DNA of 64,000 nucleotides from Branchiostoma lanceolatum (lineage: Eukaryota; Chordata; Leptocardii; Amphioxiformes; Branchiostomatidae). The DNA is taken from positions 22,720,474-22,784,473 of the forward strand of contig NC_089724.1 in NCBI RefSeq assembly GCF_035083965.1, in the 5' to 3' direction. The notes under the pieces were generated by a model. That model was given only the letters and a program-made list of their open reading frames with translations. It was not told the origin of the DNA and did no database searches. The translations under genes and the position numbers were made by a program. Positions 3,701 through 64,000 of the stretch are shown piece after piece. Positions within the stretch are counted from its first letter, which is position 1; each line of letters opens with the position of its first letter.

Positions 3701-6700
3701 GGTAGGTTTTGTTTTTATGGATGACACCCCATCCCCAAATCTTTTTGAAAAGTGGTTAGGACTAACGTCTTGTTACAAGTGGACATTTGACAGGGATGAT
3801 AACAGATGTTTTTTCAGGTGTATTTTTCAATATGATAAAACAATGTACCTGTAACGTGTGGTAGGTCAAATCCTTTTAGAATGTTACCTAGTGTATGATA
3901 ATAATCTAAAGCTCCTGTCTAATGAAAAATGAAATAGACCCTTACTTTTAGCCCAACTTTTGTAATTGTGATCAGAGTGACACCGCAAAGCCCCGAGGCC
4001 CCATGCCCGTCCTCCTACGAGTCATCTGGGACAGGATCATACTGGACGAGGCTCACGCCATCAAGAACCACAAGTCGCAGACGTCCGTCGCTGCCTGCCA
4101 GCTGAGGGCACACAGCCGCTGGGCCATGTCGGGAACACCGATACAGAACGACCTGATGGACATGTACCCACTAATGCGCTTCCTGCGCTGTGCACCCTTC
4201 GATGAGATGAAGGTGTGGAAGAAATGGGTAGATAACAAGACAGGTGAGGAGCAATTGATTGTCGACAGATTTTGCAAAGCAATTGTCAAACATGTTTACT
4301 TACTTACTTTTTTTGGGCCCTTTGCCCCAGTCAGAGCATAAGCCACAGTGTGCCCAAAACCATTTCCTCTTGAAGATCTGGCTTTTTCTTTTGAGGCTCT
4401 ACCTGTGGCCCAATATAGAATGTAACTGAAAGGTTTTGTTTGTTGCTGATGACCAGCCAATGGGAAGGCCCGCCTGAACACGCTGGTGAACAGCCTGCTG
4501 CTCCGAAGAACAAAGGGGCAGGAGGGGAGGGACGGCCGTCCGCTGGTCAGGCTCCCACAATGCAACAGGATAAGTCATGTGATTGAGCTGTCTGGTGACG
4601 AGAGGACTGTGTATGACAAGTTCTTTCAGGACACAAGGTGGGTTGGCACGTTTTAGGAGAGTTTAGGATATCATTTTAGAAATCTCCCATGACATATTCA
4701 TGGACAAAACATCTTCTGCGCTGATGGCGGGCAGTTTGATTTAAAAGCGGGCCTGCAACTGTGATATCAACATTTCATTACAGACTGCAGACTGCTTTTG
4801 AAGAAGTAATTTTAAATGTTGAAAACTTATTACAAACTGACTGATTTGTAGGACTGACCCACTGATAATATGGTTACAGTGTTGTCCAGAATTTATGCAG
4901 GTAAAAAGGGGCAATGATTTGAAAAATTATTAAACTGAATGGTATCTGCTTGTTGAACTAAGTTTCGTATTGTTTTCAGAAAAACGTTCCAGAACTATCT
5001 CCTCCAGCATGGAGAGAACGTAAAGGACAGTGTTCCCCCCTCAGTTGGTACAGTCCAAACTGCTCCTGCAGGGGATCCTAGGACTGCAACAGGACAGCAT
5101 CAGAAGGTTCCAGGAGTGCAGCAGAATGTTCCAGGAGTGCAGCAGAATGTGAAAGTGAGCCACATCTTGGTGCAGCTGCTGCGGCTGAGACAATGCTGCT
5201 GTCATCTAAGCCTCATGAAGGAGGTAAAGTACCTGGAGAATATTATTACATCATCTCCATACACGTTTTACAGTGTATGGAGAGGATTCATTCTTAAACC
5301 CTCATGTTTGCCTCTGCGTGCCATTTGTTGATCAATGCAAGGAGGTTATATATACTATATAGTCTATATAACCTCCTTGATCAATATGCAGGTGTGTAAT
5401 GGGCTTTTAGGAAAGACAATATATGGATCATAACGAGAAAAAAATCTCGACATTTGGGAGGAAGTCCAACCATTTTACACAAAAGGGGTACATGTTAAGT
5501 ATCCTGATACAGACACAGGTTACAGAAAGCAAGGAGGTTTGAATATCTTAACCTTGCAGAAAGCTATTTTCCCACTGTTTGCAAGAAGAATTACAACACG
5601 TAAGACTTAAAGTTACTAAAAGTTTTCAACATTTCCAGTGTCTTTTCAAATCCAAAGTGAGACTCATGTGACCTGTTGTCTCCCTGCAGGCTGTAGACCC
5701 GGAGACCTTTGTGAGCGAGGGCATCGACCTCACTCTGGAGCAGCAGCTGAGGGAGATGAGCCTCCAGGATAGCAACCCTGCAACCACGCCTAGTAACAGG
5801 GACCTACCAAGCAAAGATGCAGAGAAGTCCTCTATGTTTCACTCTGACAAACCAAGTACTAAGGTGATCACATGTCATGTCATGACATCAACTAGAAACC
5901 CCAAAGCTGATATCATGTGAGGTTGCAAAATTTATCAAATTGAGATGATTTTATAGTGGATCTAAGATGAAATGCGTTCAGTATTCTTAATCAGTTTCTG
6001 GATAATTTACTTGCGAATCTACAAATCAAAGAGGAATATATCCCTTCACACATTCACTCTTTCGTTCAGTCATTCAGAAAATATTTTGACCCTACTTCCC
6101 ACAGATCCAAAAGGTTCTGGGTATCCTGGCTAGCAACAAGTCAAAGTCAACACCCGACAACCCAGTGAAGAGGTCAGTTTTATCAGGGATTCTCTTCTGG
6201 TGTTCTTCAATACATGTAATTTGTTGTGATGTAGGAATATGTTAAACTCCATACATTTATCAAAGGTCATAGTTATGTACAGCTTTCAGTGAACATTATG
6301 TTTAGAAGAGCCAAGTCGTGTTGACCAGGTCAGATTGAAAACATAACATGTAGAATTCAGGAAATTATTCCTGTCTCCTTAGTGTGATTGTCTCCCAGTG
6401 GACCAAAATGCTGGACGTCATTGGGCAGCACCTGGAGCATGCTGGGTACAGGTACGTCGTGATCCGGGGTGGGGTTCCACCCAAGCAGAGGATGGAGGCT
6501 GTGGAACAGTTCAACAGGAACCCCAAGGGGCCAGAGGTCAGAATAACACCACTGTTCACCCAGATCATAATGTCATTATCTTTGTCTCAACTGTTATGCA
6601 ATTCTCTTTTTAAGGTAATTTTCCCATTTGTCTTTGCAACTTCCTCATCCAAATTGTTCTTGTTATGATTTTGGTTGCAGAATTTTTTATTTCATCTTCC

Positions 6701-11306: not shown

Positions 11307-23842
<12,536 letters not shown>

Positions 23843-41100: not shown

Positions 41101-44100
41101 TTGTTTTTAGAAAAAAAAATGACACTCAAAATTAGCTCAACTTGAATCATGTAAAACCTTAGATAGTCATTTGGTTGTAGTGTATAGTTTTATTCCATAT
41201 ATTGTACTTATGTCTTGTTTTATGTTTACTGTTGTTGCCATACTTTGTACCTGCTACAATAGTCACGCAATTAAGTTCTTCTTCTTCATTTTATGATTAC
41301 CCTGTTGTAACACATAGTCAGGACTTGCATTGTAAAGGTTGGAAACCAGTCAGATTTGGTCAGCGCTGTCTCCAGGACCCATCCCTCCATGCTGGGATGG
41401 AAATTAGATTGTTGTAACGGACAAAAATTTCAACCCATCCATCCCCAAGATCTGCATCTAATTTTGTAAGCTTGAAATGACAGATTTTACAATGAAAATC
41501 ATTAATATGGGCTACCAAACAATGAGTAGGACAGAAAACAATTTAAAGCTGGAGACAGCCCTGGATTTTGTGCTGGACACAAAGTCATCAGTGGTATGGT
41601 TTCTATTTGTTTCTGTTGGAAACCAGCTGAGCTTATCAAGCTCATTTGCCTCTCCCCCAGACACGTCGCTGCAGTGTCGCGCCCTGAACATCACGGAGGA
41701 CCTGGGGCAGATCCAGTACGTGTTCACAGACAAGACAGGCACGCTGACGGAGAACATGATGGTGTTCCGCAGGTGTGCTGTTGGAGGGAAAGATTACGCA
41801 CACAACATCAAAGGTATTACCGGGTTGACGAAGAGACAGAGAATTTGTCTCGAAAGATCCCCAGAGCAATCTTTTTTATATTGTGTGTAATGATTAAATG
41901 TTTGTCAAAAGAATATCAAAGGTCAGTAGATACGTGTAGGTGACAGAAAATAGTGGTTTACCCCTATCTGTATCAGTTAATATCAAATTCTGCCCTAGTC
42001 AAACTGAATAGCAGCATAACACCAGTACATGGCAACAGTCAGTTATGTTACATTAAGGGAATTGTCTCACCTTCATATTTAACTTTTGTCTAGCATTATT
42101 CAAATTACATGTATATGAAAAGTGCACACTGTATTCCATGATACATGTACGAAACCCCTTTCTCATCATCATCAATCATACCCTTACAGTTGTGGAGCGT
42201 TTGCGTAGCTCAACCTCCAGCTCAGTTTTTATTTCATGGTTTCCATCAGGTCCTTTCATATCAGGTTTGTCTCACTTTCAATGAGTTACCCAAAGGTGAC
42301 GCAGGCGGCAAGGATTATCATTCATTGCTGCTGGCTTATAGAAAGAAGGAAGCTTTATAGTCCTAGATCTGTTCTAAAACGTATCAGACCAAACAAGTCT
42401 AAACTCGAAGCCTAACGTATAATTTGAAATGCCTTTATGTTCCAGATGAGATGAAGGGAGAGGAGGCACTCCGTAAAAGTATCGTCCATATCCCAGGACA
42501 GACAACCCAGGACTTCATCATGGTACTGAGGACTTCTTGTTCTGTTCTTCAATTTATTTGGAATCTTTCCAGTCTAGCAATTTCTATGAAGGAAGTAAGG
42601 GTTGTAAAGGGAGGTGTGACTGTGCAAAAAAGGTGTGCAGCAAACCTGAAGGAACACTTTAATCTGAACCAAGTTATAAATGGATTTTGAAGTCTTTTTT
42701 TGTGTGTTTGTGACTTATTTTTGGACCAGATCCAGGGATTTTAAAAGAATCTGCAACCACTGGCTGATTGGGCCAATTTCAACATTAAGCTTCCTTCAGA
42801 CAAAGACTTTTACAGTAATGTTAAACTTGTAAGCTCTGTGTTTATTCTAGGACCACCCTATGGTTCCTGAGCCAAATTCTATCCTCCAAGAAACTGTGGA
42901 GTCTGTATACACTGAAGCGCCTCCTAGTGGGGAGCAGGGCAACTACAGTGAACTGGAAGAGTTTTTCATGGTGCTGTGTGTCTGCAATACTGTCATGGTC
43001 ACAACAGGGCACCATGATCCACAGGTAAGCTCTGCGAGATATGAAATTGTTTGAATTGTGATGATGAGTGTAGTAGGGTTTTATTGCATGATAAAAGTAA
43101 AAGTAGCAACATGTGAGGATCAGATCACAATCAAAATGAAAGTCTTTTAAAAATTGATATAAAAAGGAGAGTTAAAGTTTTGTTTTGTTTTGCTGAAGAT
43201 TAACCTGAAAGTAATTTTCATTTTTCTCAAATTGACCTTACCAATTGTACTTCTATGTAGGAATCCATTGACCAGCAGGCAATTGGTGCTACCAGTGGGG
43301 CCCGATGGGATGTTTCCGGGGATAACATTGCTTTTGAACCTGAGACAGACAGCACTACTACTGGCAATACATCCCAAACCGCGCCCATTCAGTACGAGTC
43401 AGAGAGTCCAGACGAAGCTGCCTTGGTGTACGCTGCAGCAGCGTATGGCTACACCTTACTAGAGCGCACGCCTCGAAGTGTGAGGATTCGTAAACCAGAC
43501 CAAAGCGAGATCACCCTCGGAATCCTGAACATCCTCCATTTTGACTCCACAAGGAAGCGAATGTCTGTGATCGTGAGGTATCCTGAGAAGAATGAGATAG
43601 TGTTGTACTGCAAGGGAGCGGATGAGGCCATTTTTAGCCAACTGGATGCAAATGTTCAAGGTAGGTCTTCCATGTTCAACATGATAATACCATTCCTGCA
43701 TTTTTTTACTTTATTATTACTAATAGTTAATTTTGGCATTCAGTTTGGATAATGGCATGTAACGTCATGCCATCATTTTGGCTTTTATGTGTTCTTGCAT
43801 TAGTGTTTGTAAATTGGTCCTATAACACATGCTGTATTTGCTAGCAAACCTTGGCCCTTTAACTTCTCTAGTCTTGAACTTCTATAATTTGTGTACACAG
43901 GACAACAGGAGAAACAGCTGACTGTGGAGGGGCATCTGCTGAACTACTCCCAGGAGGGACTCAGGACTCTCTGTATGGCCAGGAAGGTACGTTTGGAGAT
44001 GAGTGCAACATTGCCACCTCCTTTTTAATTTATTACTCCTGAATTTTCTTTACAAGAGCAAATTTCCATGCAGCTTTGAAACTGATTTCCAATATCTTAC

Positions 44101-47100
44101 AAATTAAAATGGCTCCTCACACATACGCCTAACGGCCAAATACAAGCAATGCAACTACATGTATCTAATGAAGAGTTCATACAATCCTAATGGCTTCAAG
44201 TTTCAATTAACAATAGTTTTAGGTAAGAACAACTTTAATATAGATATTTTAATTCTGGATTACATTGACATATCATGATCATTATTGGCAGGTTATGACT
44301 GAGGCAGACTATCTGACTTGGCAAGGAGAGTACACCAAAGCTGCACAGCATTTGGAGGCTCGGGATGAGATGGTTTACATGTGTGCGTGCAGGCTGGAGC
44401 AGGGTCTCACACTGCTTGGTGCCACAGGTGGTCATGGTTTCTAAGTTTCAGTTGGATTTTAAGATACAATTTGATAACTCACAAGTTTTCCTCTTCTATG
44501 TTGTTGCTACTTTAAATCTTAAGGTTCAAGGTCTTGCTTTAGATTACTTAGTGTCAGAAAGCAAACCTTTTTGATTTTGAAGTGGTGATAAAACATGCAG
44601 AACTTTCAAGCCATTTGGCTATGAGAAGAAGGGGGCAAAAAAAGTTTGCATGGAGTTCTACATTCCATCAAAGAGCATGTATGTTCCTTATGTATTATTT
44701 CTGCCCTAACCTATTGTGCTTGATTACATATTTGACTGTAAGGGATTACAAGAGTATTTCCATCTTTGACGTGACAACTGTTTGGTGTTTATTTGTGCCA
44801 GGTGTGGAAGACAGACTGCAGGAGGGGGTACCTGACACCATCGCTGCACTCCGTCGGGCTGGACTGGGAGTGTGGATGCTTACAGGGGACAAACAAGTCA
44901 GTCTTACTCCTTCCTCTGACACTAGAATATTTTCTAAATCAGTTGCTTTCAGTAACATCATTTCTTCCTCAAAGGTTGAAGCAGTAAAGAAGTTACCTCA
45001 TGTTGTTATCTCATGACATGCTTTTCTTAAAGGTTGTGCAACATAGGGAAATCCCAGCTCTATACATTGTACAACCTCTCATATATATATGGCCTCCGTC
45101 GGTAAGTATTGACCATGGTAAAATCCTAATTCACAATAGCCCTACAGCATCGACTATGTCTTGTACATTGTATCAGAATGATACAGAAGCATTTGGATGT
45201 GGGTCCTCCCACTAGAATTAGAACAGTTTCTAACAGGTGATGCAACAGGTGCACATACCCCCCCCCCCCTTCTTAATGTTTGAGTCTCAAGGTGTTGCAC
45301 ATTCATACTTTCTGAGATTTTATGTTTTTACAATTGCTAGTAGATGACCACAAAACAGGTAGCAGCTCTTACATACAGTATTACTTCTTCACTGTTCTTC
45401 AGGAAACTGCCATCAACATCGGCTACTCCTGTCACCTGTTACAGAAGGGAGACAACGTCATCAGGTTCAACTGTCATGATGGAGTAAGTCGTGATCATTG
45501 TTGACAAGTTAAAGCCTTGCGGATGTATATGTATATATTTGAGAACTTGTGTACTTCCATGGATACCAATATACATGCACCTCTGCCAAATAAGTGTACC
45601 TTTACACAGAAAGGTCTGCACTTTGTATTGCAGAAGAGATTAAGAAGTTCTCCTTTCCATTCATAGCCCTTCATACTGATTCACTACTATTGTATTCAGG
45701 TGTTTGATTTCTACTCAACTTTTTAAAACAAAATAAATAAAAACCAATTAGATTTTCTTGGTGGAAAATTTTGTATTGTTTAATAAATCAATATCAAATA
45801 CAAATTGGCCAGAATGTTGCAAGAAGTTGAACCCAGTGTTTTCTTTCCATTTTAGAAGCTGATAGACCAGCAGCTGAAAGAGATCTGTCTCCAACTGGGC
45901 GCCTGTGGCTGTCAGCAGTGCCGCCCACAAACAGCCTCTTGCATGGAGAAACTACACAACTTCTGCTGCAGATGTGGTCACACAGTCGAAGCTTCAAACA
46001 CTTGCTTACGACAGCAGAGAAATGGTGCCGTTGATGCCAGTGAAGTAGGGTATGGTGCATCTCTTGACATTACCAAGAAGATACGAAGAGTAGTTCCAGC
46101 AGCATGGATTGGACCTGATGAAGATGTAAGACATATGCCGCCCAAACAGAACTCTGTCAAAACAACTAAGTCCTTCCAAGGAAATGCGTCATCGGGGGAT
46201 CCGTGCCTTGTTGTGGATGGACGTACACTTGCCCTGCTTCTTGAGGAGCAGAGAGCTGATTGGTTGCTGGCAGTGGCGCGGGAATGCAAGGCTGTCATTT
46301 GCTGTCGTGCCACGCCCCTGCAGAAGGCCAACATGCTGAAACTTGTCAGAGACAGGTGAGTGATGGACAGCTACACTTTGGGACAGCTCAAATGTATTGT
46401 GCTGAGGAGGGGGCAGGGAGTAAAATTAGCAATGCAAATGTTTAGAATAGTCAGTGCTGATTTTCTTTTGTTATTGATGTCCTTCTGTCAAGGCAGAAAT
46501 TATATTACTGGAATGTCTTTTGAAGATAATGTGGAAGGAAATTAGATTATTAGCATGATTACAGAGGGCTGAAAAGCAGTTTTTTTTTTAATTTTTGCAT
46601 ATCTGAAGCGTACATAGCTAGAGAGACTTCTCATGTCAAGTCAAGAGGTCACCTGAGAAACAAAGGTCATACCGTTTTCCCCAGACTACAGGTGATGACG
46701 CTGGCAGTGGGTGACGGTGCCAACGACGTAAGCATGCTGCAGGCAGCAGACATCGGGGTGGGCATCATGGGACAGGAGGGCATGCAGGCCGTCATGGCCA
46801 GCGACTTCTCCACGCCGCGCTTCTCGTTTCTACGGCGACTGCTGCTAGTGCACGGGCACTGGTGCTACTACAGGCTGGCAACTGTGGTGGCGTACTTCTT
46901 CTACAAAAATGCTGTAAGCCCAGCGTTTGTCATCTCTACTTTCATCATTAGTTATACATTTTTGGTTCATTATACTTCCAATTCTGGAAAGGTTTTCAGA
47001 CTGGATTGCTCCAGTTTGGTATTACTAATAGTTGTAGCAGAAACCTACACAGAGGAGATTTAATAAGTAGTTCTCCTAGATCCTCTAAAGTACATGTATG

Positions 47101-53237: not shown

Positions 53238-56200
53238 CTACACCATGCTGTCCCTGATGATAGATGCTCCCTGGGCACTGATGACTACATCAGTCTGGCT
53301 TCTTGCCTCAGAAAATGCAGAGGAGACACTCCTCTTTGCCTCTGTCTGCACATGCTCACCTTAAGAAGAAGTCAAAAGAATAAGAAAAGTTAGTGGACAG
53401 GGCCTAGGGCTAAAAGGTTTTGTTAGATACATTGTACTTGTAAAGTGATGTGTGATGTGTTATTTATTATTCCCTGAACCATTTAAAAGCGTACATTTTC
53501 CACAGTTCCCATCAACATACATTTGTACAGCATCTTTGCTGACAGACAATGCCTAAAGCGCCATGGTTTACTTCACAGTTGGTGGTCACAGGGTTTCATG
53601 CGTCATCTTTTTTGGGGGTGTTCAATCTTTTTTTGGTTTTGTCATGCAATTTTCCACCCCAATTATATGGACTGTCTCTTTCACAGAAGAATGACAGTGT
53701 GTTTTGACATCCATTTGAGATGTGACCAACATGACGATCTATATACAACATTGTGACAGAATTCATAATAACAGCAGTGTGCTGAGAATGTGTGGGTAGG
53801 TATAGGATATCAGTACTTACCCTCTTCATGATGATGATGGAAGACATCATGGAAAAAGCCATGGTGACTATGCTGGGCCAGCTCCTGCTCGTGAATCCGC
53901 ACGGCTTCCTCGTGCTCAAGCTTCTCCTGGTGTGACCGCAGCAGCTTAGCCTTGTCAAGGACTGGGAAGGGACATGCAGAAGGTTTCAGTTATTAGGCAG
54001 AGGCAGCAAGGAATATTTTTATTAGGTATGTATTTTGTCCATAAGCCTGAATTTCTCAAAAGACACTTTTGATGTTAGTCCAATCCAAGATCAGACCAAG
54101 GAGGTTAAAATCATCAACCTTGATCAGACCAGCACTATAACAGTGAAACAGGCCTCAAGCAACAGAATTTACAGAGTAACAAGATTTCAAGGAAAATGGG
54201 ACAAGCGGGATATTTACTGGTGAAGATGGTGAAAGTGATCACAGCAGTAAATGCAATGATGGCCACAAGTCCAGCCAGATTGACTCCCAGTTGATGCCAG
54301 GCATCGTACTGTCCAGCATAGCCGCAGTAAAAGATACCATTGTCCTTGTCCATGAAGGGGCAAAGAAGAACACCCCATATTCCAGGTGCGAGGTGCACTG
54401 TGAGAAGATACAAGGTACAATTGAGTTCACAGCCAGTATATGGTATTCTCCAAGCAGAGGTTGTAGTCGAGTGGGGTAGTAGTGGCCGGGGTTTTTTACG
54501 TAACATTACGGGAGGCAGACCTAAAAAAACCCGGCCACTACTACCCCACTTGACCGAATCCTCTGCTTGGAGAATAAGTATATGGTCCATATGGCAACCA
54601 TTTGATCGGTATCAATGTCAATTGACAACATTTGCACAAATAGATCTCAGTCATTCTAGAACGATCCAATTGCCCTGGCTCACATACACTGTGTATCATG
54701 CATGATTCCTATCAATAAATCAATAGCCAGATCAAAGTAATGTAAAAGGGTCCCAAGCCCAAGTAACTGTTGTATTGTCTGCAACATAAGAGCAATTGTC
54801 TAACCTGCAGTGGCATCAACAGGATCCTCAATGGAAGTAAACTTGTGCAGGCTGATGGACCACAGGCAGTGGATAATGGCACCAGAGGATCCAATGATCA
54901 GAGCACCATAAGTAGTCGCAACATTGGCAGAAGCACAGACTGCCACCTAGACAAAACACAGGGTCATTTTTTCACTGTGAATAGGCAAGGCGGCTTGAGA
55001 AAATCATGTCCTTGATCAAAAAAGACTATACTCAAATTAAAACAGTCTACCCTGTGAGCAACATGTACATTTACTAACTGTATTGGCACATCTGAATACA
55101 AAATGAGCTTACAGTTCCTCCCAGGCATCCATTCACCACAATGCACAGCACATAGTAGTCATTGATCTTCTTGTGAACCAGGCGCTCAAACAGAATGGTG
55201 GCTAGACCACCGGATGCACAGGCCAGCCCAGTGTTCATAACTGCACGGGCCACCGCACCAGAGTCTCCAGCTGAAGACATTGCACCCTGCGAACTACCAT
55301 TGAAGGCGAAGAATCCGACCATCAGGATAAAGAAACCTGTGAAAAACAAAGTACATCACGAATAAAGAAAACAATCAAACCTTTGTTTCTATAATACTAT
55401 ACCTAACATCTCATAACCTATACAATTACAAAGCTGATACAGTGTAAGGTGACTGAGGCTGCATCTGGTTACTTGGATTTGCCAAATGCCTCCTAAGCCT
55501 TCCTATTAGTCTCCAAAGCATTTCAGAATCAGTAATCATGACTGGTTCTATCTATCTACAGGAAAGATTCAGGATGGGTGATTGGTGCGTTTCTTACCCA
55601 AGGTGACCAGGGCTGGAGCAGACTCGGAGATGGCATGGTCTTCAACATCCTTGGCCAACTTTCTGCGGCCCAGTACAATGGCCCCCATTAGGGCAGCTGT
55701 CCCTCCACAAGCGTGCACCACACCACTTCCGGCAAAGTCCTGAGAAATTCATGAAGAGCATGATACCTCGGCATGTTAGTCTATGTGTGAAAAAAATTTC
55801 AAATTAATTCTGTAATTTTAAGTCACACCACTTTTTAAATGTTAAAATATAAACGCTAATAAAAAAACGTCATCATACCATTACATTTTACATCTAATCA
55901 AAAAAGGAGCACCGACCAGTTCACCCATAACACCTGAACCAGTTCTTTCACTCTACATTTGAGTCACATGAGTTGCAGAGTTTTCTTTGATGTTTCCTCT
56001 ATCATTCAGTTGTTATCATGGCAACTTGCCATGATAACAACTGAATGATAGGCCAACAATCCTTGTTGCTTACCTGGTAGGCAAGACCATACAAATCAGA
56101 GTTGAGCCAGCCATAGCCACTCCACGTCCAGTGAACAACAGTTGGGTACACAAGGCCGGTGATGATAAAAGAGTAGACCAGGTACCCGTGGTATGAGGCG

Positions 56201-57102
56201 CGACCAACCATAGCCCCAGACACGATAGCAGTGGCGGTGGCGGCAAATGAGTACTGGAAGAATACCCAGGTCAGTGCGTCATCGTTCTCAAGGTCGCTCA
56301 GGGCGAAGTGTACTGTACCCATGTATCCGCCAGTTGTTGGGCCAAACGCCACACCATATCCAAAGAAGAAGTAGCCTGCAGTACCAACACCTATGGAGAC
56401 AAGCCAACAACCCTGTTGGTGTTGTAACAAATTGTTACACCATGGGATGGACATGCAATACAGCATGATACTGCTCTTAAATCATACTCGTATCTGCAAT
56501 GGTAAAATGTTGCTCAAACTATGGAACATAATGATGAATCCTGTTAATCCTGCCCCACTGAGATGTGTGAGGTGTGTTGCCCCAAAGTTTTGAGGTCTAA
56601 TAGACATGCAGTGTGCATATAATTTTAAGTTCTCTTGTGCTTTATCTTTTATTTTATTCTGTATTTTGAAGTTTTGCCAGTATTTTCTTTTTTTACGCAA
56701 CTTGCCTCAACAAGGAGGCCAAATCTGAAAAAAGACACATAACAGCAACAAGAGAAAGAGGAGACCAGATTATTACTTATTTGTCCCTGACTATTCGAGG
56801 TCAACGACCTACAGGTTTCATAATTGAACTTGTCAAAGGCTGTTCAAAAATGTTACAGCGAAGACATGCTACTTACAAACGTCCATGACGTTGTTGAGCA
56901 GGATGGCGTAGACGTTGGCGACCTTGACCGAGCCGACTTCCAACAGGGCGAAGCCTGCCTGCATGGTCATGATGAGGCAGCCACATAGGATGAGTAGCAG
57001 TGTGTCCAAGCTCACGGAGTACACACCTAGCGTAGCGCTGATCTCTTCGATTGCCGCCTCTGTGGCGTTCATCCGCCCGTCAAGAGTTTCAAGTGTCGCC
57101 AT
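53238..57102 (-). CDS. Ammonium transporter (Amt family)
   Basis: Eight exons: 57102-56877, 56390-56074, 55739-55598, 55336-55113, 54946-54805, 54397-54218, 53961-53821, 53359-53238 (stop TAG). They total 497 residues, normal for eukaryotic Amt1-like proteins. It has the Amt signature DFAGSGVVHACGG, whose His corresponds to the first pore histidine of the AmtB family, and MQAGFALLEVGSV near the first membrane segment. Hydrophobic segments continue to about residue 410. The protein moves ammonium across the plasma membrane, usually as a trimer. The cytosolic tail (exons 7 and 8) has HSHHGFFHDVFHHHH. The last exon is chosen because its 3' splice site follows a long pyrimidine tract and it stays in phase to a stop; without it, exon 7 would read through to TGA near 53810. 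Confidence 0.95.
54097..54122. repeat. Micro-palindromic insertion, copy 7 (26 bp)
   Basis: It starts CAAGGAGGTT and ends AACCTTG. An exact 7-bp repeat ATCAGAC flanks it at 54090-54096 and 54123-54129. It lies in an intron of the ammonium transporter. Confidence 0.8.
54444..54576. mobile_element. MULE-like MITE in an ammonium transporter intron
   Basis: The 133-bp element is almost entirely two inverted repeats of about 55 bp starting TATTCTCCAAGCAGAGG. Both arms share GTGGGGTAGTAGTGGCCGGG. An exact 9-bp duplication AGTATATGG flanks it (54435-54443 and 54577-54585). Nine-bp duplications and long inverted repeats suggest the Mutator superfamily. Confidence 0.85.
56001..56049. repeat. Perfect 24-bp-arm palindrome with one-base centre
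   Basis: The arms match exactly around a single C. Each arm starts or ends with ATCATTCAGTTG or its complement. It lies 25 bp downstream, in transcript sense, of the 5' splice site at 56073 in the ammonium transporter. Confidence 0.85.
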
Positions 57103-58701: not shown

Positions 58702-61700
58702 CTACTGTGTGCTGTCCATGAAGAAGGTGATGTGACTGTGGTTCTCCAGCAGACCGTCGGCATCCTTCTTCAGCTGGTAGTGCAGAACTGTATGGGTGAT
58801 ATTTCAGAACACAAATGTCTCAAATTAGACTGCAGGTTTAAGTATAACTGATTAACACACGCACACACACACAAATATAACCGTTACACACAAGCAGGCC
58901 TGTCCCTAGTGCTGAATGCCATCCACACACAGGCAAGCAGACATGTCACAAGTTCTAGTGTTGAAAGCCATTCAGATACAGGCAAACAGACCTGTCCCTA
59001 ATGCTGAATGCTATCGGCACATAAACAAACAGACATATCCTTAGTGCTGAATGCCATCCACACAGGCAAACAGACATGTCCCTAGCGCTGAATGCCATCC
59101 ACACATAGACAGACAGACCTGTCCCTTGTGCTGAATGTCATTCACACAAATACGCACACATACACAATATCTCACGGATAAAAAATCATGTGTCTAGCGG
59201 TGTCTAATAGAGAGTCTGATAGACACATTGAACCTACCCAACGGCCCAGTGGGCGCGAGTCTCAGCGCGACCGTAGATGAGATCGCCTCTACCCTAGTGC
59301 TGCTGTACACCTTAGAAGTCACAAAGCCCCGGGGCGGAACATGACCGGTCAAGGACGCCTCCAACTTCACAGAAGGAAAAAAAACAAAAACAAGAAACAC
59401 CAAATATAAAACGTGCCGCCTAGAATGAGCAAACGTGTAGCGTTGGTTATTTCATGACCATGTCTCTCCGCGCTGTGTATAGACTTGGTATGATTGTTTT
59501 CCTGGGGACATGTTGTGAAACGTTATGTACGTACCTCCATACGGGGAGAGTGCCTGAACAGAAAGGAATGAGATCCTCCATTGTCTGTCACGGTGAAGTT
59601 CATGTCTTGCAGCGTGCAGGAGATGGTGAAATCCTTCCCCAACTAGGAATAAGGGCAACAATATTTAGATTTGGAAAAAATGGATGATAACGTTATATCA
59701 TAGGAGCGTGGCTGCTCAGTATCACCTACTCAGCGTCTTTGAGAAAAACGAAATTTCGTGCACAGCGATGTCATTATAGACGCTCGCTTTTACGGTAAAA
59801 TGTATTTGCTTTTGTCTAACATTCCATTAATAGGTTTGATATCAATTCTTTTCTGTCCCTACAGCGTTTTGAAGGAGCAGCGACGGAACGAGGAGATAGT
59901 GAGATATGCAGATACCAATACGCCCACACGTATACATACACATAGAGATAAGTGTACAAAACCCACCCAGTTGATTTGTTGCATCAGTGTGCGGAAGATC
60001 TTCGCCGTCATGGTCACCTCGCAGCTGTATGCCTCCTTCTCAGGCTGGAAAAAAAACGAAAACCAAGCTGGTACGAATGACTTAGTTTGGTCTGAAAACA
60101 TAAAACTCGTTCTATCTGATGAACGCGATGTAAGTACCACGAACGACCTGCCGTGAAAAGGCCACACGTACATATTAACACATAGGACCTACCGAGGTCC
60201 ACCTAAACTCCATAGGTTTTACCTGTGCACTGATATTGCCATTACAGTCAAGGCCAGTGGAGACTTTCATTCACCCTTTCACGTTAATGTTGGGTTGATA
60301 TTTGGCTAATTAATTGGTCATGATAACCTTGATCAGTAAACGTACCGGAACGGCCACTTCCTTCAGACTTGTTCCAATCTTGTCCATGTCACCGACAGCA
60401 TTCAGGCGCCCAACTAGAAAATACGACCAGATAAGCCAACAAAAAAAGAACTTACAAAAGCCCTAGAGATACATCACGGAGCTATGAGATCTCTGAATTC
60501 TTATTTGTTTCGAGTTTCCTTGAAAGTCACAAACCAGATAAGTTCTTACTCAATGTGTCTGCGTAGACCTCCATAGAGTACGGGCCGTCCTTCCCACCCT
60601 CCTTCTGACGGGTCACATTGAAAGTGGCGAACGAACAGACGTGGTAGTCTGCCGGGAACAGCTTACGTACGCTGGAGGGGAAAGAACATTATAATAATAG
60701 TCTTTATTGCATATTCCTGCCCAGAAGGGCTAAATGCACAGAGGACCACATGTGGCCTGTAAGAAACATAATGCAAAACATAAGTTGATGAAATGCTACA
60801 CTAACATTAAAATGAAAAACATAAAAAAACATGCAAACTGTGGGCTATTGCTAAACTAAATGATGGCCACCTATTAGTTTCTTCTCTCTTTCTGAAACAT
60901 TTGGAGATATGCTACATACTTTGTCTATTATATGTTCGTTCTTACATGGCATTAGGTATATAAAAGTGTCCTGCTTTGACATTTTTGTACATTTCCTGTC
61001 TAATTCTATTATCTTAAACAACGATTGCCGCCCATCTTTATATAAAGAACAATCAAGTAAAAAGTGGATTTCATTTTCAACATATAAATCGTCACAGAAT
61101 TCACATGTTCTTAGTGATAATTTATTGGCCTCCTCAATGCCTTACAATGCTAGAATATACTCCCATCTCACTTTTCGAGGTGCGCCCCCATGCGGAAGCC
61201 GTCACAGTGCTGGATGTCTGAGTACCGTGCCTTCAAGGCAGCCTGCATGAAAATAGACTCGTGCACGTCTTTAGTCTCCATGACGAATGCATTTTCGTCA
61301 CCTGTCGGTTTGAAACATCACAATATCCTCAACATAACTCTTTCAGAAGAAGTAAATGATGGTGGAGTTTTGGAGAAATATGATGATGATTTGCAATGAG
61401 AGATAAAATGTACATGTAGCTGGCAGAAATTTCCGCTTCGATTTCCGTGCTTTACAAGAAATCAAATGATTACTCATTATGTGATGAACTTTTTAAAACG
61501 GGATCATCAAACGATTTTCCGTTTTCGATTTGCTATAAAGCCGTTAGTTTCACAACCACGTATTTTGAAAGGATTAATATTTATCAAGCATGTCTGTTGA
61601 AACGGTTAAGACATTCACAGGAATAAAGCATGTTGAAAGAAGTAAGACATTTACACCGCAAGATCGCTTCCGAGTTGAAATCTTTTGCAGTCATGAGAAC

Positions 61701-63908
61701 TCGATCGATAGCTGTGACATCCAGGTCGGCGAACAGTGCTGAAGTCTTCAAGTCCTCAAGACGTGCATGTATGGAGAAGATCGACGTCAATCAAAGCAGG
61801 CCGAAGATCACATATACGTATTTGGTGCAAACTAGCAGGGTCACACATCTCGCAATAGCTTTTTTTTTAATACGGATACGTAAACGCATTGTTTTGGCGT
61901 AGCTCAAACCGCGACTAGAATTTTGATGACTTTAATATTTTCATGACTTTTGATTTGCATTTTATGTGTATTTTGAATAGCGACAAGAAGCTCATAGAAG
62001 CCATTTTCATATATTGATGTTTGGTATTTTGTTCCACATCCTTCTTCGATGCATCAGAACACTAGAACGGGTGGTCTATACATTTTGGGGGTTCTACATT
62101 GTAAATTCAAGATGCCGCCACAGTGCTCCGGGGCAGAAATCGAGATGGATCTATATCCAGATTTGTGTAGAATATTGTGAACATCATGTGTATCCAATTT
62201 GGGACTCTTAGACACATCTGCGCAATTGGTCTGACTTTTACCAGCTATGCCCCTGGACTAATATAAACTACGCACAAAAAGTTCGGAAACTTAACTTTGG
62301 TCGATCATATCTCCGTTGTTTCTTGAGCAATTTCAATGATTTATATGTCATTGAAAAGCTTTTGTGATTTTCTTTCCCATGATACTTAACTTATTATTGT
62401 TGTAAATTAATACAACGAGCACCAGACCTGCTTATGCGAGCGAGTTTCATAAAAAAAGTGCCCAAATTACCTTACTAATGTAAAACGCTCAATTCAGTAT
62501 TTTGTCTTCTGCTGGTAGCACGTGGCTTTTGTACGAGGGTAATATGGAACTTGAATCAACAAAACACATTAATATGAAAGCCAAGTGTAGTCTTCATCCA
62601 AAGAAAAAATGCGTAAAGGAGCCTCAGTTATGATGAGGGTGGCTTAATACTGAGTACACACGCCAAGCGCTGTCACCACAGCCCGGCACATCCTCCTCAT
62701 GCTTGTCATCAGTTTTGTTACGCGGTCCCTGGCTATTCTTCCACAAGGAGTCGTCGCAGGTCGACCAGTGTTGCTCTGTTGATCACAACTGCTTGCACAG
62801 CTCGCCCAAGCTGATCAGTGATCACAGAGTCTGAGACTGTGTTCAATTGTGTTGAGATCTGGGCTGCAGGAGGGGCATTCTATCCTCTGTATTCCTGCAT
62901 ACTGGAGGTGGTCTGAAATGACTCTCATTCTGTATGGACGTGCACTTTCATCTTGCAGAATGGCACCCAGTCTCATAATCATATTGCAGAGGTAAGGATC
63001 TTGGAAATGTGACTGGATGGAGGAAGCTGTCTCTTTATCGACACATCGAAGTTGCTTAGGATGATTAGCCTGTTTTTTCCGCTGGCAGTTAGCGTTGTAC
63101 TGCCTCACACTATAACACTGACCCCAACAAACAGTCAGTCAATCTGTGCAACAGTCAGCATAGGGTTCTCCTCGCCGCCCCAACACTTTCTTTTACCCAT
63201 CCAACAGTCGAAGTAAACCTTCTCTTATCTGTAGCTGTGAACATAACATTTCACCACACACTGTTCCATTCACGATTTGGACGACACCACCACTAATGGG
63301 TTTGGCGCTGCGCTAGGTGTTTGACACTATTATGGAAATTTGGGCACTTTTTTTCTACAACCCACTCGTGTAAGCAGGCCTGGTGCTCACTCCATCAGAT
63401 TGCAATTATAATGAGTAGGGTATCATAGGAAAGGAAATTACACAGGCTTTCCAACGATACATAATACATTGAAATTGATAAAAAAAACAATGGAAATATG
63501 ATCAATCAAAGTAAAGTTTCCAAACTTTTTGTGCGTAGTTTATATGCACAATGTATATACATTGTGTACCTTCATAAAAGCGTCCTTCTCGATCGCACCA
63601 AGGTCCTTCCCTTTTTTCTGTGAACCGGAAAAAACATGAATACCTAGCTTAGAAATTCCTGTTTGCTGGTTCAAATGAAAGACAGAGAGTAAGAAACGCC
63701 GATATGAAGTATTTGGATCATGTGCATCATAGAATTTTACGAACGTTTTCTTTAGTGTTAAATGAACCGCGCACACTGGGTCCTTAGTTTTTTTCTGAAC
63801 ACCTGTACCTGTTTCGAAAGAAACTTTAATTTGACGAGTGTTCACAATACCCACCATGTTATCCATGATAGTCTTCATCAAGTTCATGAGGTCGGATCGG
63901 CCGGACAT
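58702..63908 (-). CDS. Divergent PCNA-like sliding clamp protein
   Basis: Ten exons fit in phase: 63908-63855, 63617-63570, 61754-61655, 61301-61172, 60671-60550, 60413-60346, 60044-59967, 59642-59535, 59364-59238, 58787-58702 (stop TAG), coding 306 residues. Residues 42-306 align end to end with the two-domain PCNA fold. The domain starts FADLDVTAIDRVL. HCDGFRMGAHL lies where PCNA has its conserved CDRN...L. A connecting loop ends VPPEKEAYSCEVTM (PCNA: PEQEYSC). FTISCTLQDMNF follows (PCNA: VISCAKDGVKF). SSTVALRL and VLHYQLKKDADGLL match the last strands. Identity looks very low overall. The lysine ubiquitinated in PCNA (K164) is Leu211 here. There is an extra N-terminus of about 40 residues. 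The 3' splice site of exon 3 could instead be at 61745. An in-frame upstream exon beyond the window is possible. No known gene name fits. Confidence 0.75.
58896..59157 (+). repeat. Minisatellite filling the last intron of the clamp-like gene
   Basis: About six copies of a 40- to 48-bp unit containing GTCCCTAGTGCTGAATGCCA, with substitutions and length changes. They take up most of the intron between exons 59364-59238 and 58787-58702. Confidence 0.9.
60690..61120 (-). mobile_element. LINE 3' fragment in a clamp-like gene intron
   Basis: The minus strand reads CEFCDDLYVENEIHFLLDC, a C-x2-C-x9-H-x4-C knuckle found at the C-terminus of some animal LINE ORF2 proteins, followed by SLYKDGRQSLF. The rest of the element is missing. 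Confidence 0.65.
62266..63539 (-). mobile_element. Degenerate Tc1/mariner transposon
   Basis: The 1,274-bp element is flanked by TA (62264-62265 and 63540-63541). Its inverted repeats of about 50 bp start AACTACGCACAAAAAGTT at both ends with a few mismatches. It sits in the clamp-like gene intron between exons 63617-63570 and 61754-61655. Size and ends are typical of the superfamily. Confidence 0.9.
62708..63180 (-). pseudogene. Tc1-like transposase remnant
   Basis: Pieces of the catalytic domain are readable in different frames: a piece with GRRGEPYADCC near 63170, a run to RPYRMRVISDHLQYAGIQ and CPSCSPDLNTIEH, then after a frameshift near 62815 a piece with LVDLRRLLVEEWPG. In-frame stops separate the first two pieces, so it cannot code an active transposase. 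Confidence 0.85.
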
Positions 63909-64000
63909 GTCTGTGAGGAGAAAGTGCGTCACACCAATGGCTATGTATGAATAAAATGCATACCCCCAAAAGGAGCCATTGAAGCATAAGCTGTGTATTC
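63909..64000. other. Edge of window, 5' side of the clamp-like gene
   Basis: A 3' splice site (TCCTCACAG) ends at 63911, two bases before the ATG, so at least one more exon, coding or 5' UTR, lies beyond the window. Confidence 0.6.

What the first reader, a model, noticed from the sequence alone, without database searches (positions are those of the whole stretch)
58702..63908. A divergent PCNA-like sliding clamp gene
Seen: ten phase-compatible exons give a 306-residue protein whose residues 42-306 follow PCNA from first to last strand, with short matched blocks (CD at the end of the first half-domain, EAYSC after the connecting loop, ISC, SSTV-L, final HYQL) and hardly any other identity. 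Known: animals have PCNA and the RAD9-RAD1-HUS1 clamp; no further clamp paralogue is standard. Inference: it is a separate ring protein, perhaps for repair, meiosis or a specialised polymerase, or a partner that modifies PCNA trimers.
Basis: partly seen in the sequence, partly recalled or inferred. Interest (0 to 1): 0.87.

Follow-up and report, generated by a model that had tools for sequence, protein, structure and literature searches.

The report
Amphioxus PCNA relative with export signal
A lancelet gene is a strongly altered duplicate of PCNA, the ring that holds DNA-copying enzymes on DNA, and predicted relatives carry an export signal, so it may work outside the nucleus rather than on DNA.

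Summary
The gene is real. Its residues 19-306 equal an NCBI-predicted Branchiostoma lanceolatum protein already named "proliferating cell nuclear antigen-like". It is homologous to PCNA along nearly the whole clamp (21-23% identity), with no Rad1, Rad9 or Hus1 match. The same species has a canonical PCNA.

First, predicted relatives from B. floridae and a B. floridae x belcheri assembly begin with a hydrophobic, signal-peptide-like stretch. Second, most residues that I recall as serving the clamp are changed: DNA-facing basics, PIP pocket, Y114, K164. Five of six cysteines stay.

Best reading: a PCNA duplicate that kept its introns, entered the secretory pathway and binds proteins rather than DNA. 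Export in B. lanceolatum itself is inferred; NCBI's model for that species lacks the signal. AlphaFold gave no usable model (pLDDT 39.9 and 42.2).

The parts
63855..63910 (-).
   Evidence: GT donor; AG acceptor at 63911-63912. NCBI's P0001 instead starts at the ATG at 63857 and uses a donor 9 bases further on
63570..63617 (-). Exon 2, N-terminal extension
61655..61754 (-). Exon 3, end of the extension and start of the clamp region
   Evidence: weak acceptor, junction shared with P0001
61172..61301 (-). Exon 4, clamp region, first half (holds the HCD block)
60550..60671 (-). Exon 5, clamp region, first half
60346..60413 (-). Exon 6, region of the interdomain connecting loop; 68 bases like the matching human PCNA exon (human length recalled)
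59967..60044 (-). Exon 7, clamp region, second half (EAYSC)
   Evidence: PCNA_C 178-286
59535..59642 (-). Exon 8, clamp region, second half (ISC)
59238..59364 (-). Exon 9, clamp region, second half (SSTV)
58702..58787 (-). Exon 10, last strands and stop codon; lacks the LAPK tail of PCNA

Best explanation
The gene is an amphioxus paralogue of PCNA that arose by duplication of the intron-bearing PCNA gene. It gained an N-terminal signal exon (upstream of this window) and a short N-terminal extension. The protein most likely enters the endoplasmic reticulum and ends up secreted or displayed on the lumenal or outer side of a membrane. There the retained PCNA-type body, with its inherited cysteines, works by binding proteins and not as a DNA clamp. 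Shown: exon structure, homology, a canonical PCNA in the same species, the changed residues, signal-like N-termini in predicted relatives. Inferred: the signal exon in B. lanceolatum, export, the folded shape, and the protein-binding role.
For: Full-length homology to PCNA. Canonical PCNA P0040 in the same species, 80% identical to human. Intron sites match human PCNA as recalled: 4 of 5 exactly in codon and phase, the fifth in phase and 5 codons off; 0 of 200,000 random placements gave four exact matches. Hydrophobic N-termini in P0002, P0003, P0004: best 12-residue hydropathy 2.81, 3.28, 2.65, against 0.78 in P0040 and a median 0.82, maximum 2.13 over 120 PCNAs. Against P0040: DNA-facing basics 2 of 10 identical (4 of 10 still basic), PIP pocket 4 of 13 with A252-P253 absent, Y114>G, K164>L; cysteines 5 of 6 kept (residue roles recalled).
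Against: NCBI's B. lanceolatum model P0001 has no signal stretch, and the exon that would carry it lies outside the window. The relatives' N-termini are gene predictions; P0004 skips several exons, and P0003 has a shifted C-terminus. By eye there is no classic cleavage motif, so a membrane anchor is possible; no SignalP-type tool was at hand. Three sequons are not unusual: 11 of 120 PCNAs have three or more. AlphaFold did not produce a confident clamp. No expression or localisation data were available.
Confidence: 0.6

Rival explanations
1. A second nuclear sliding clamp, or a subunit that mixes into PCNA trimers, for repair, meiosis or a special polymerase.
For: Collinear homology to PCNA over nearly the whole clamp; K20, K77 and basic residues at 14 and 217 remain; NCBI's P0001 lacks a signal stretch.
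Against: Six of ten DNA-facing basics are no longer basic, the PIP pocket and C-terminal tail are altered, Y114>G and K164>L (roles recalled); signal-like N-termini in three predicted relatives.
Confidence: 0.15
2. Two products from one gene: a long secretory form (signal exon) and a short cytosolic or nuclear form starting at the ATG at 63857, as NCBI models it in B. lanceolatum.
For: P0001 starts MVGI from that ATG with a different donor; P0002 and P0003 are called isoform X1, so other isoforms are predicted.
Confidence: 0.17
3. A decaying duplicate without function.
For: Only 21-23% identity to canonical PCNA; P0003 isoform X1 reads the last exon in another frame.
Against: Open over 306 codons and ten exons; 85% identity to P0002 over its whole length; 5 of 6 cysteines kept, about 0.003 by chance if each site were kept at the average 22.6% (rough, since cysteines are conserved above average anyway).
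Confidence: 0.08

Closest known systems
Canonical PCNA (P0040, B. lanceolatum; human PCNA)
   Same: Collinear homology over PCNA residues 12-251; intron sites (human ones recalled); 5 of 6 cysteines
   Different: 21% identity; 34 bits against a 99.1-bit cut-off for the PCNA equivalog, where P0040 scores 425.3; signal-like N-terminus in predicted relatives; clamp surfaces changed
Predicted 'proliferating cell nuclear antigen-like' proteins of Branchiostoma (P0001-P0004)
   Same: The same gene family; P0001 is this gene
   Different: P0002-P0004 carry the hydrophobic N-terminus, P0001 does not
Cell-surface PCNA, ligand of NKp44
   Same: A PCNA body acting outside the cell by protein binding (PMC3602199, passages; PMC5974751, start of abstract in a listing)
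   Different: That is ordinary PCNA, without a secretory sequence and not moved through the Golgi (PMC3602199, passages); here a separate gene with its own signal is proposed
RAD9-RAD1-HUS1 clamp subunits
   Same: Clamp superfamily (recalled)
   Different: No Pfam Rad1, Rad9 or Hus1 match at E<=10 for this protein

Membership tests
PCNA superfamily (by homology) | Significant match to PCNA profiles | tested here: met
   PCNA_C 25.5 bits over cut-off 23; PDB PCNAs 1.4e-6; P0001 matched only PCNA_C, not PCNA_N
PCNA superfamily (by homology) | Clamp fold | tested here: inconclusive
   AlphaFold pLDDT 39.9 and 42.2. The 50 Foldseek rows shown are PCNA entries or complexes with PCNA, but TM by query is 0.14-0.23 and rmsd about 16-20 A, and PCNAs were in the input alignment
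PCNA proper (equivalog TIGR00590) | Score above the curated cut-off of 99.1 bits | tested here: not met
   34 bits (P0001), 39 bits (P0002); canonical P0040 425.3
PCNA proper | Basic DNA-facing residues | tested here: not met
   4 of 10 basic, 2 of 10 identical (list recalled)
PCNA proper | PIP-box pocket and C-terminal APK | tested here: not met
   4 of 13 identical, A252 and P253 without partner (list recalled)
PCNA proper | Homotrimeric ring | not testable with these tools
   No multimer prediction; Y114>G, 3 of 17 recalled interface sites identical
Secretory protein | N-terminal signal sequence | tested here: inconclusive
   Present in predicted P0002, P0003, P0004, absent in P0001; in B. 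lanceolatum the exon would lie outside the window; no signal predictor available
9-1-1 clamp (Rad9, Rad1, Hus1) | Pfam Rad9, Rad1 or Hus1 match | tested here: not met
   none at E<=10

The most novel reading that the evidence does not exclude
Amphioxus has turned a DNA sliding clamp into a secreted or cell-surface protein: a PCNA body outside the cell, used as a ligand or recognition molecule, perhaps in immunity or reproduction, with no DNA role left.
Probability: 0.45. Interest if true: 0.82.

Novelty: new variant of a known kind. Interest (0 to 1): 0.62.

Why it matters
PCNA is among the most conserved nuclear proteins. A duplicate that keeps the collinear body but loses the clamp's working surfaces and carries an export signal would be a striking change of use. 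It would also be a genetically encoded case to compare with cell-surface PCNA of tumour cells, which lacks a secretory sequence (PMC3602199, passages). And it shows that a label such as 'PCNA-like' can hide a protein that is not a clamp in the working sense.

Tried and rejected
Tried without result: the window's own genome (none held); Rfam and tRNA scans (nothing); a profile search for relatives outside Branchiostoma (4 proteins at E<=10 among 7600 candidates; the three with a species in their name field and P0004 are all Branchiostoma; the method needs shared 5-residue words, so distant relatives can be missed); two AlphaFold jobs of low confidence; Foldseek on the second model, which the tool itself warns is unsafe for such a model; two paper searches for PCNA exon lengths, which gave nothing useful, so the human intron positions stay recalled.

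Three sequons as proof of secretion were judged weak after the control on 120 PCNAs.

That nothing is in print rests only (open-access full texts). Searches found 0 papers; one search listed 2 and one search listed 1, none on this; one search listed 12 of 49 papers holding two of its three terms, none opened. PMC3602199 is the only paper I opened, and of it I saw passages.

Full report
OBSERVATION. On the minus strand of 58702-63908 ten exons with GT donors and AG acceptors join in phase into 306 codons and a stop. Residues 19-306 equal, letter for letter, residues 5-292 of the NCBI-predicted Branchiostoma lanceolatum protein P0001, named 'proliferating cell nuclear antigen-like'. The window is therefore most likely B. 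lanceolatum, a cephalochordate. The acceptor of exon 3 is weak (49.5th percentile), but P0001 has the same junction.

HOMOLOGY. Pfam finds PCNA_C above its cut-off and nothing else. phmmer against the PDB gives PCNA chains at 1.4e-6 over residues 50-284; a profile of three Branchiostoma sequences reaches 6.7e-8; hhalign of that profile against 18 PCNAs gives 93.6% probability, E 2.1e-7. A profile of those 18 PCNAs scores P0001 at 28.7 bits, the best of 2000 shuffles of P0001 at 8.6. Identity to canonical B. lanceolatum PCNA (P0040) is 21%, and for the B. floridae relative P0002 23%. NCBIfam TIGR00590 (PCNA equivalog) matches nearly its whole length, but at 34 and 39 bits, far under its 99.1-bit cut-off, where P0040 scores 425.3. 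So this is a PCNA homologue but not PCNA proper. PCNA_N, Rad1, Rad9 and Hus1 do not match it. P0040 and P0001 are reported with longest contigs of 19.4 and 34.4 Mb, which suggests different chromosomes; I could not check this further.

ORIGIN. Mapped through the alignment, introns of the clamp region fall at PCNA codons 30 (phase 1), 74 (2), 107 (1), 129 (0), 153 (0), 189 (0) and 236 (1). Human PCNA, from exon lengths that I recall (they add up to the right 786 bases), has 74/2, 107/1, 129/0, 194/0 and 236/1. Four are identical; the fifth has the same phase and lies 5 codons off, next to an alignment gap. In 200,000 random placements of seven introns, three exact matches occurred once and four never; with a tolerance of 2 codons, four matches occurred 3 times and five never. 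The gene is thus a duplicate that kept its introns. The two protein searches found 4 proteins each, all Branchiostoma, within the limits of a word-based search.

THE NEW POINT: AN EXPORT SIGNAL. P0002 (B. floridae), P0003 (B. floridae x belcheri assembly) and P0004 (an older B. floridae model) begin with a short region containing Lys, a hydrophobic core, and an Asp-Pro-rich end. Best 12-residue hydropathy in the first 45 residues is 2.81, 3.28 and 2.65; P0040 has 0.78; over 120 returned PCNAs the median is 0.82 and the maximum 2.13. Against this, NCBI's P0001 begins at the ATG at 63857, with a donor 9 bases further on, and has no signal stretch; I could not see transcripts. By eye there is no classic cleavage motif, so a membrane anchor is possible; in either case the clamp body would be lumenal or outside.

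WORKING SURFACES. Of 252 aligned positions 57 are identical to P0040. Of sites that I recall as functional in PCNA: DNA-facing basics 2 of 10 identical and 4 of 10 still basic; PIP pocket 4 of 13, with A252 and P253 absent; trimer interface 3 of 17, with Y114>G; K164>L. Cysteines: 5 of 6 kept, and the protein has no others. For positions 204-216 I used the ungapped BLAST pairing instead of the MAFFT one. Sequons: three each in P0001, P0002 and P0004, two in P0003; 11 of 120 PCNAs also have three or more, so this is weak.

STRUCTURE. AlphaFold on P0001 with 22 and 65 rows gave pLDDT 39.9 and 42.2. Foldseek of the second model shows PCNA entries or complexes with PCNA in the 50 rows printed, of 939 matches at E<=10; TM by query is 0.14-0.23 and rmsd about 16-20 A. 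With PCNAs in the input alignment this is not independent support. The fold therefore rests on homology alone.

FUNCTION. Cell-surface PCNA of tumour cells binds the NK receptor NKp44 although PCNA has no secretory sequence (PMC3602199, passages). This shows that a PCNA body can act by protein binding outside cells; whether the amphioxus protein does anything alike is inference. I favour a secreted or displayed protein-binding scaffold, with confidence 0.6 for the paralogue-plus-export reading as a whole. That it is a PCNA homologue I hold near certain.

NOVELTY. The gene is already in NCBI under a PCNA-like name. No paper on a secreted PCNA paralogue came up in the searches made, which cover open-access texts only.

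Noticed in passing
62261-63545: An inverted-repeat element in the intron between exons 2 and 3: outer arms 64 nt, 89% complementary, inner arms 168 nt, 76%. An ORF at 62815-63138 looks to me like a Tc1-type transposase remnant (motif recalled), but Pfam found nothing in it.
   Followed up: partly
58901-59148: Minisatellite with a 43-bp unit, about 5.7 copies, in the last intron of the gene.
   Followed up: no
54135-56481: Ammonium transporter family gene pieces on the minus strand, next to the PCNA-like gene (1.2e-21 for 56002-56481; the 54135-54611 piece is below cut-off).
   Followed up: partly
43261-47063: Phospholipid-translocating P-type ATPase pieces on the plus strand.
   Followed up: no
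13910-14254: Tubulin piece on the minus strand; SNF2-domain piece at 3952-4341 plus.
   Followed up: no
58702-58787: In P0003 (isoform X1) the last exon is read in another frame, so the last clamp strands are lost in that prediction; model error or real isoform is not known.
   Followed up: no
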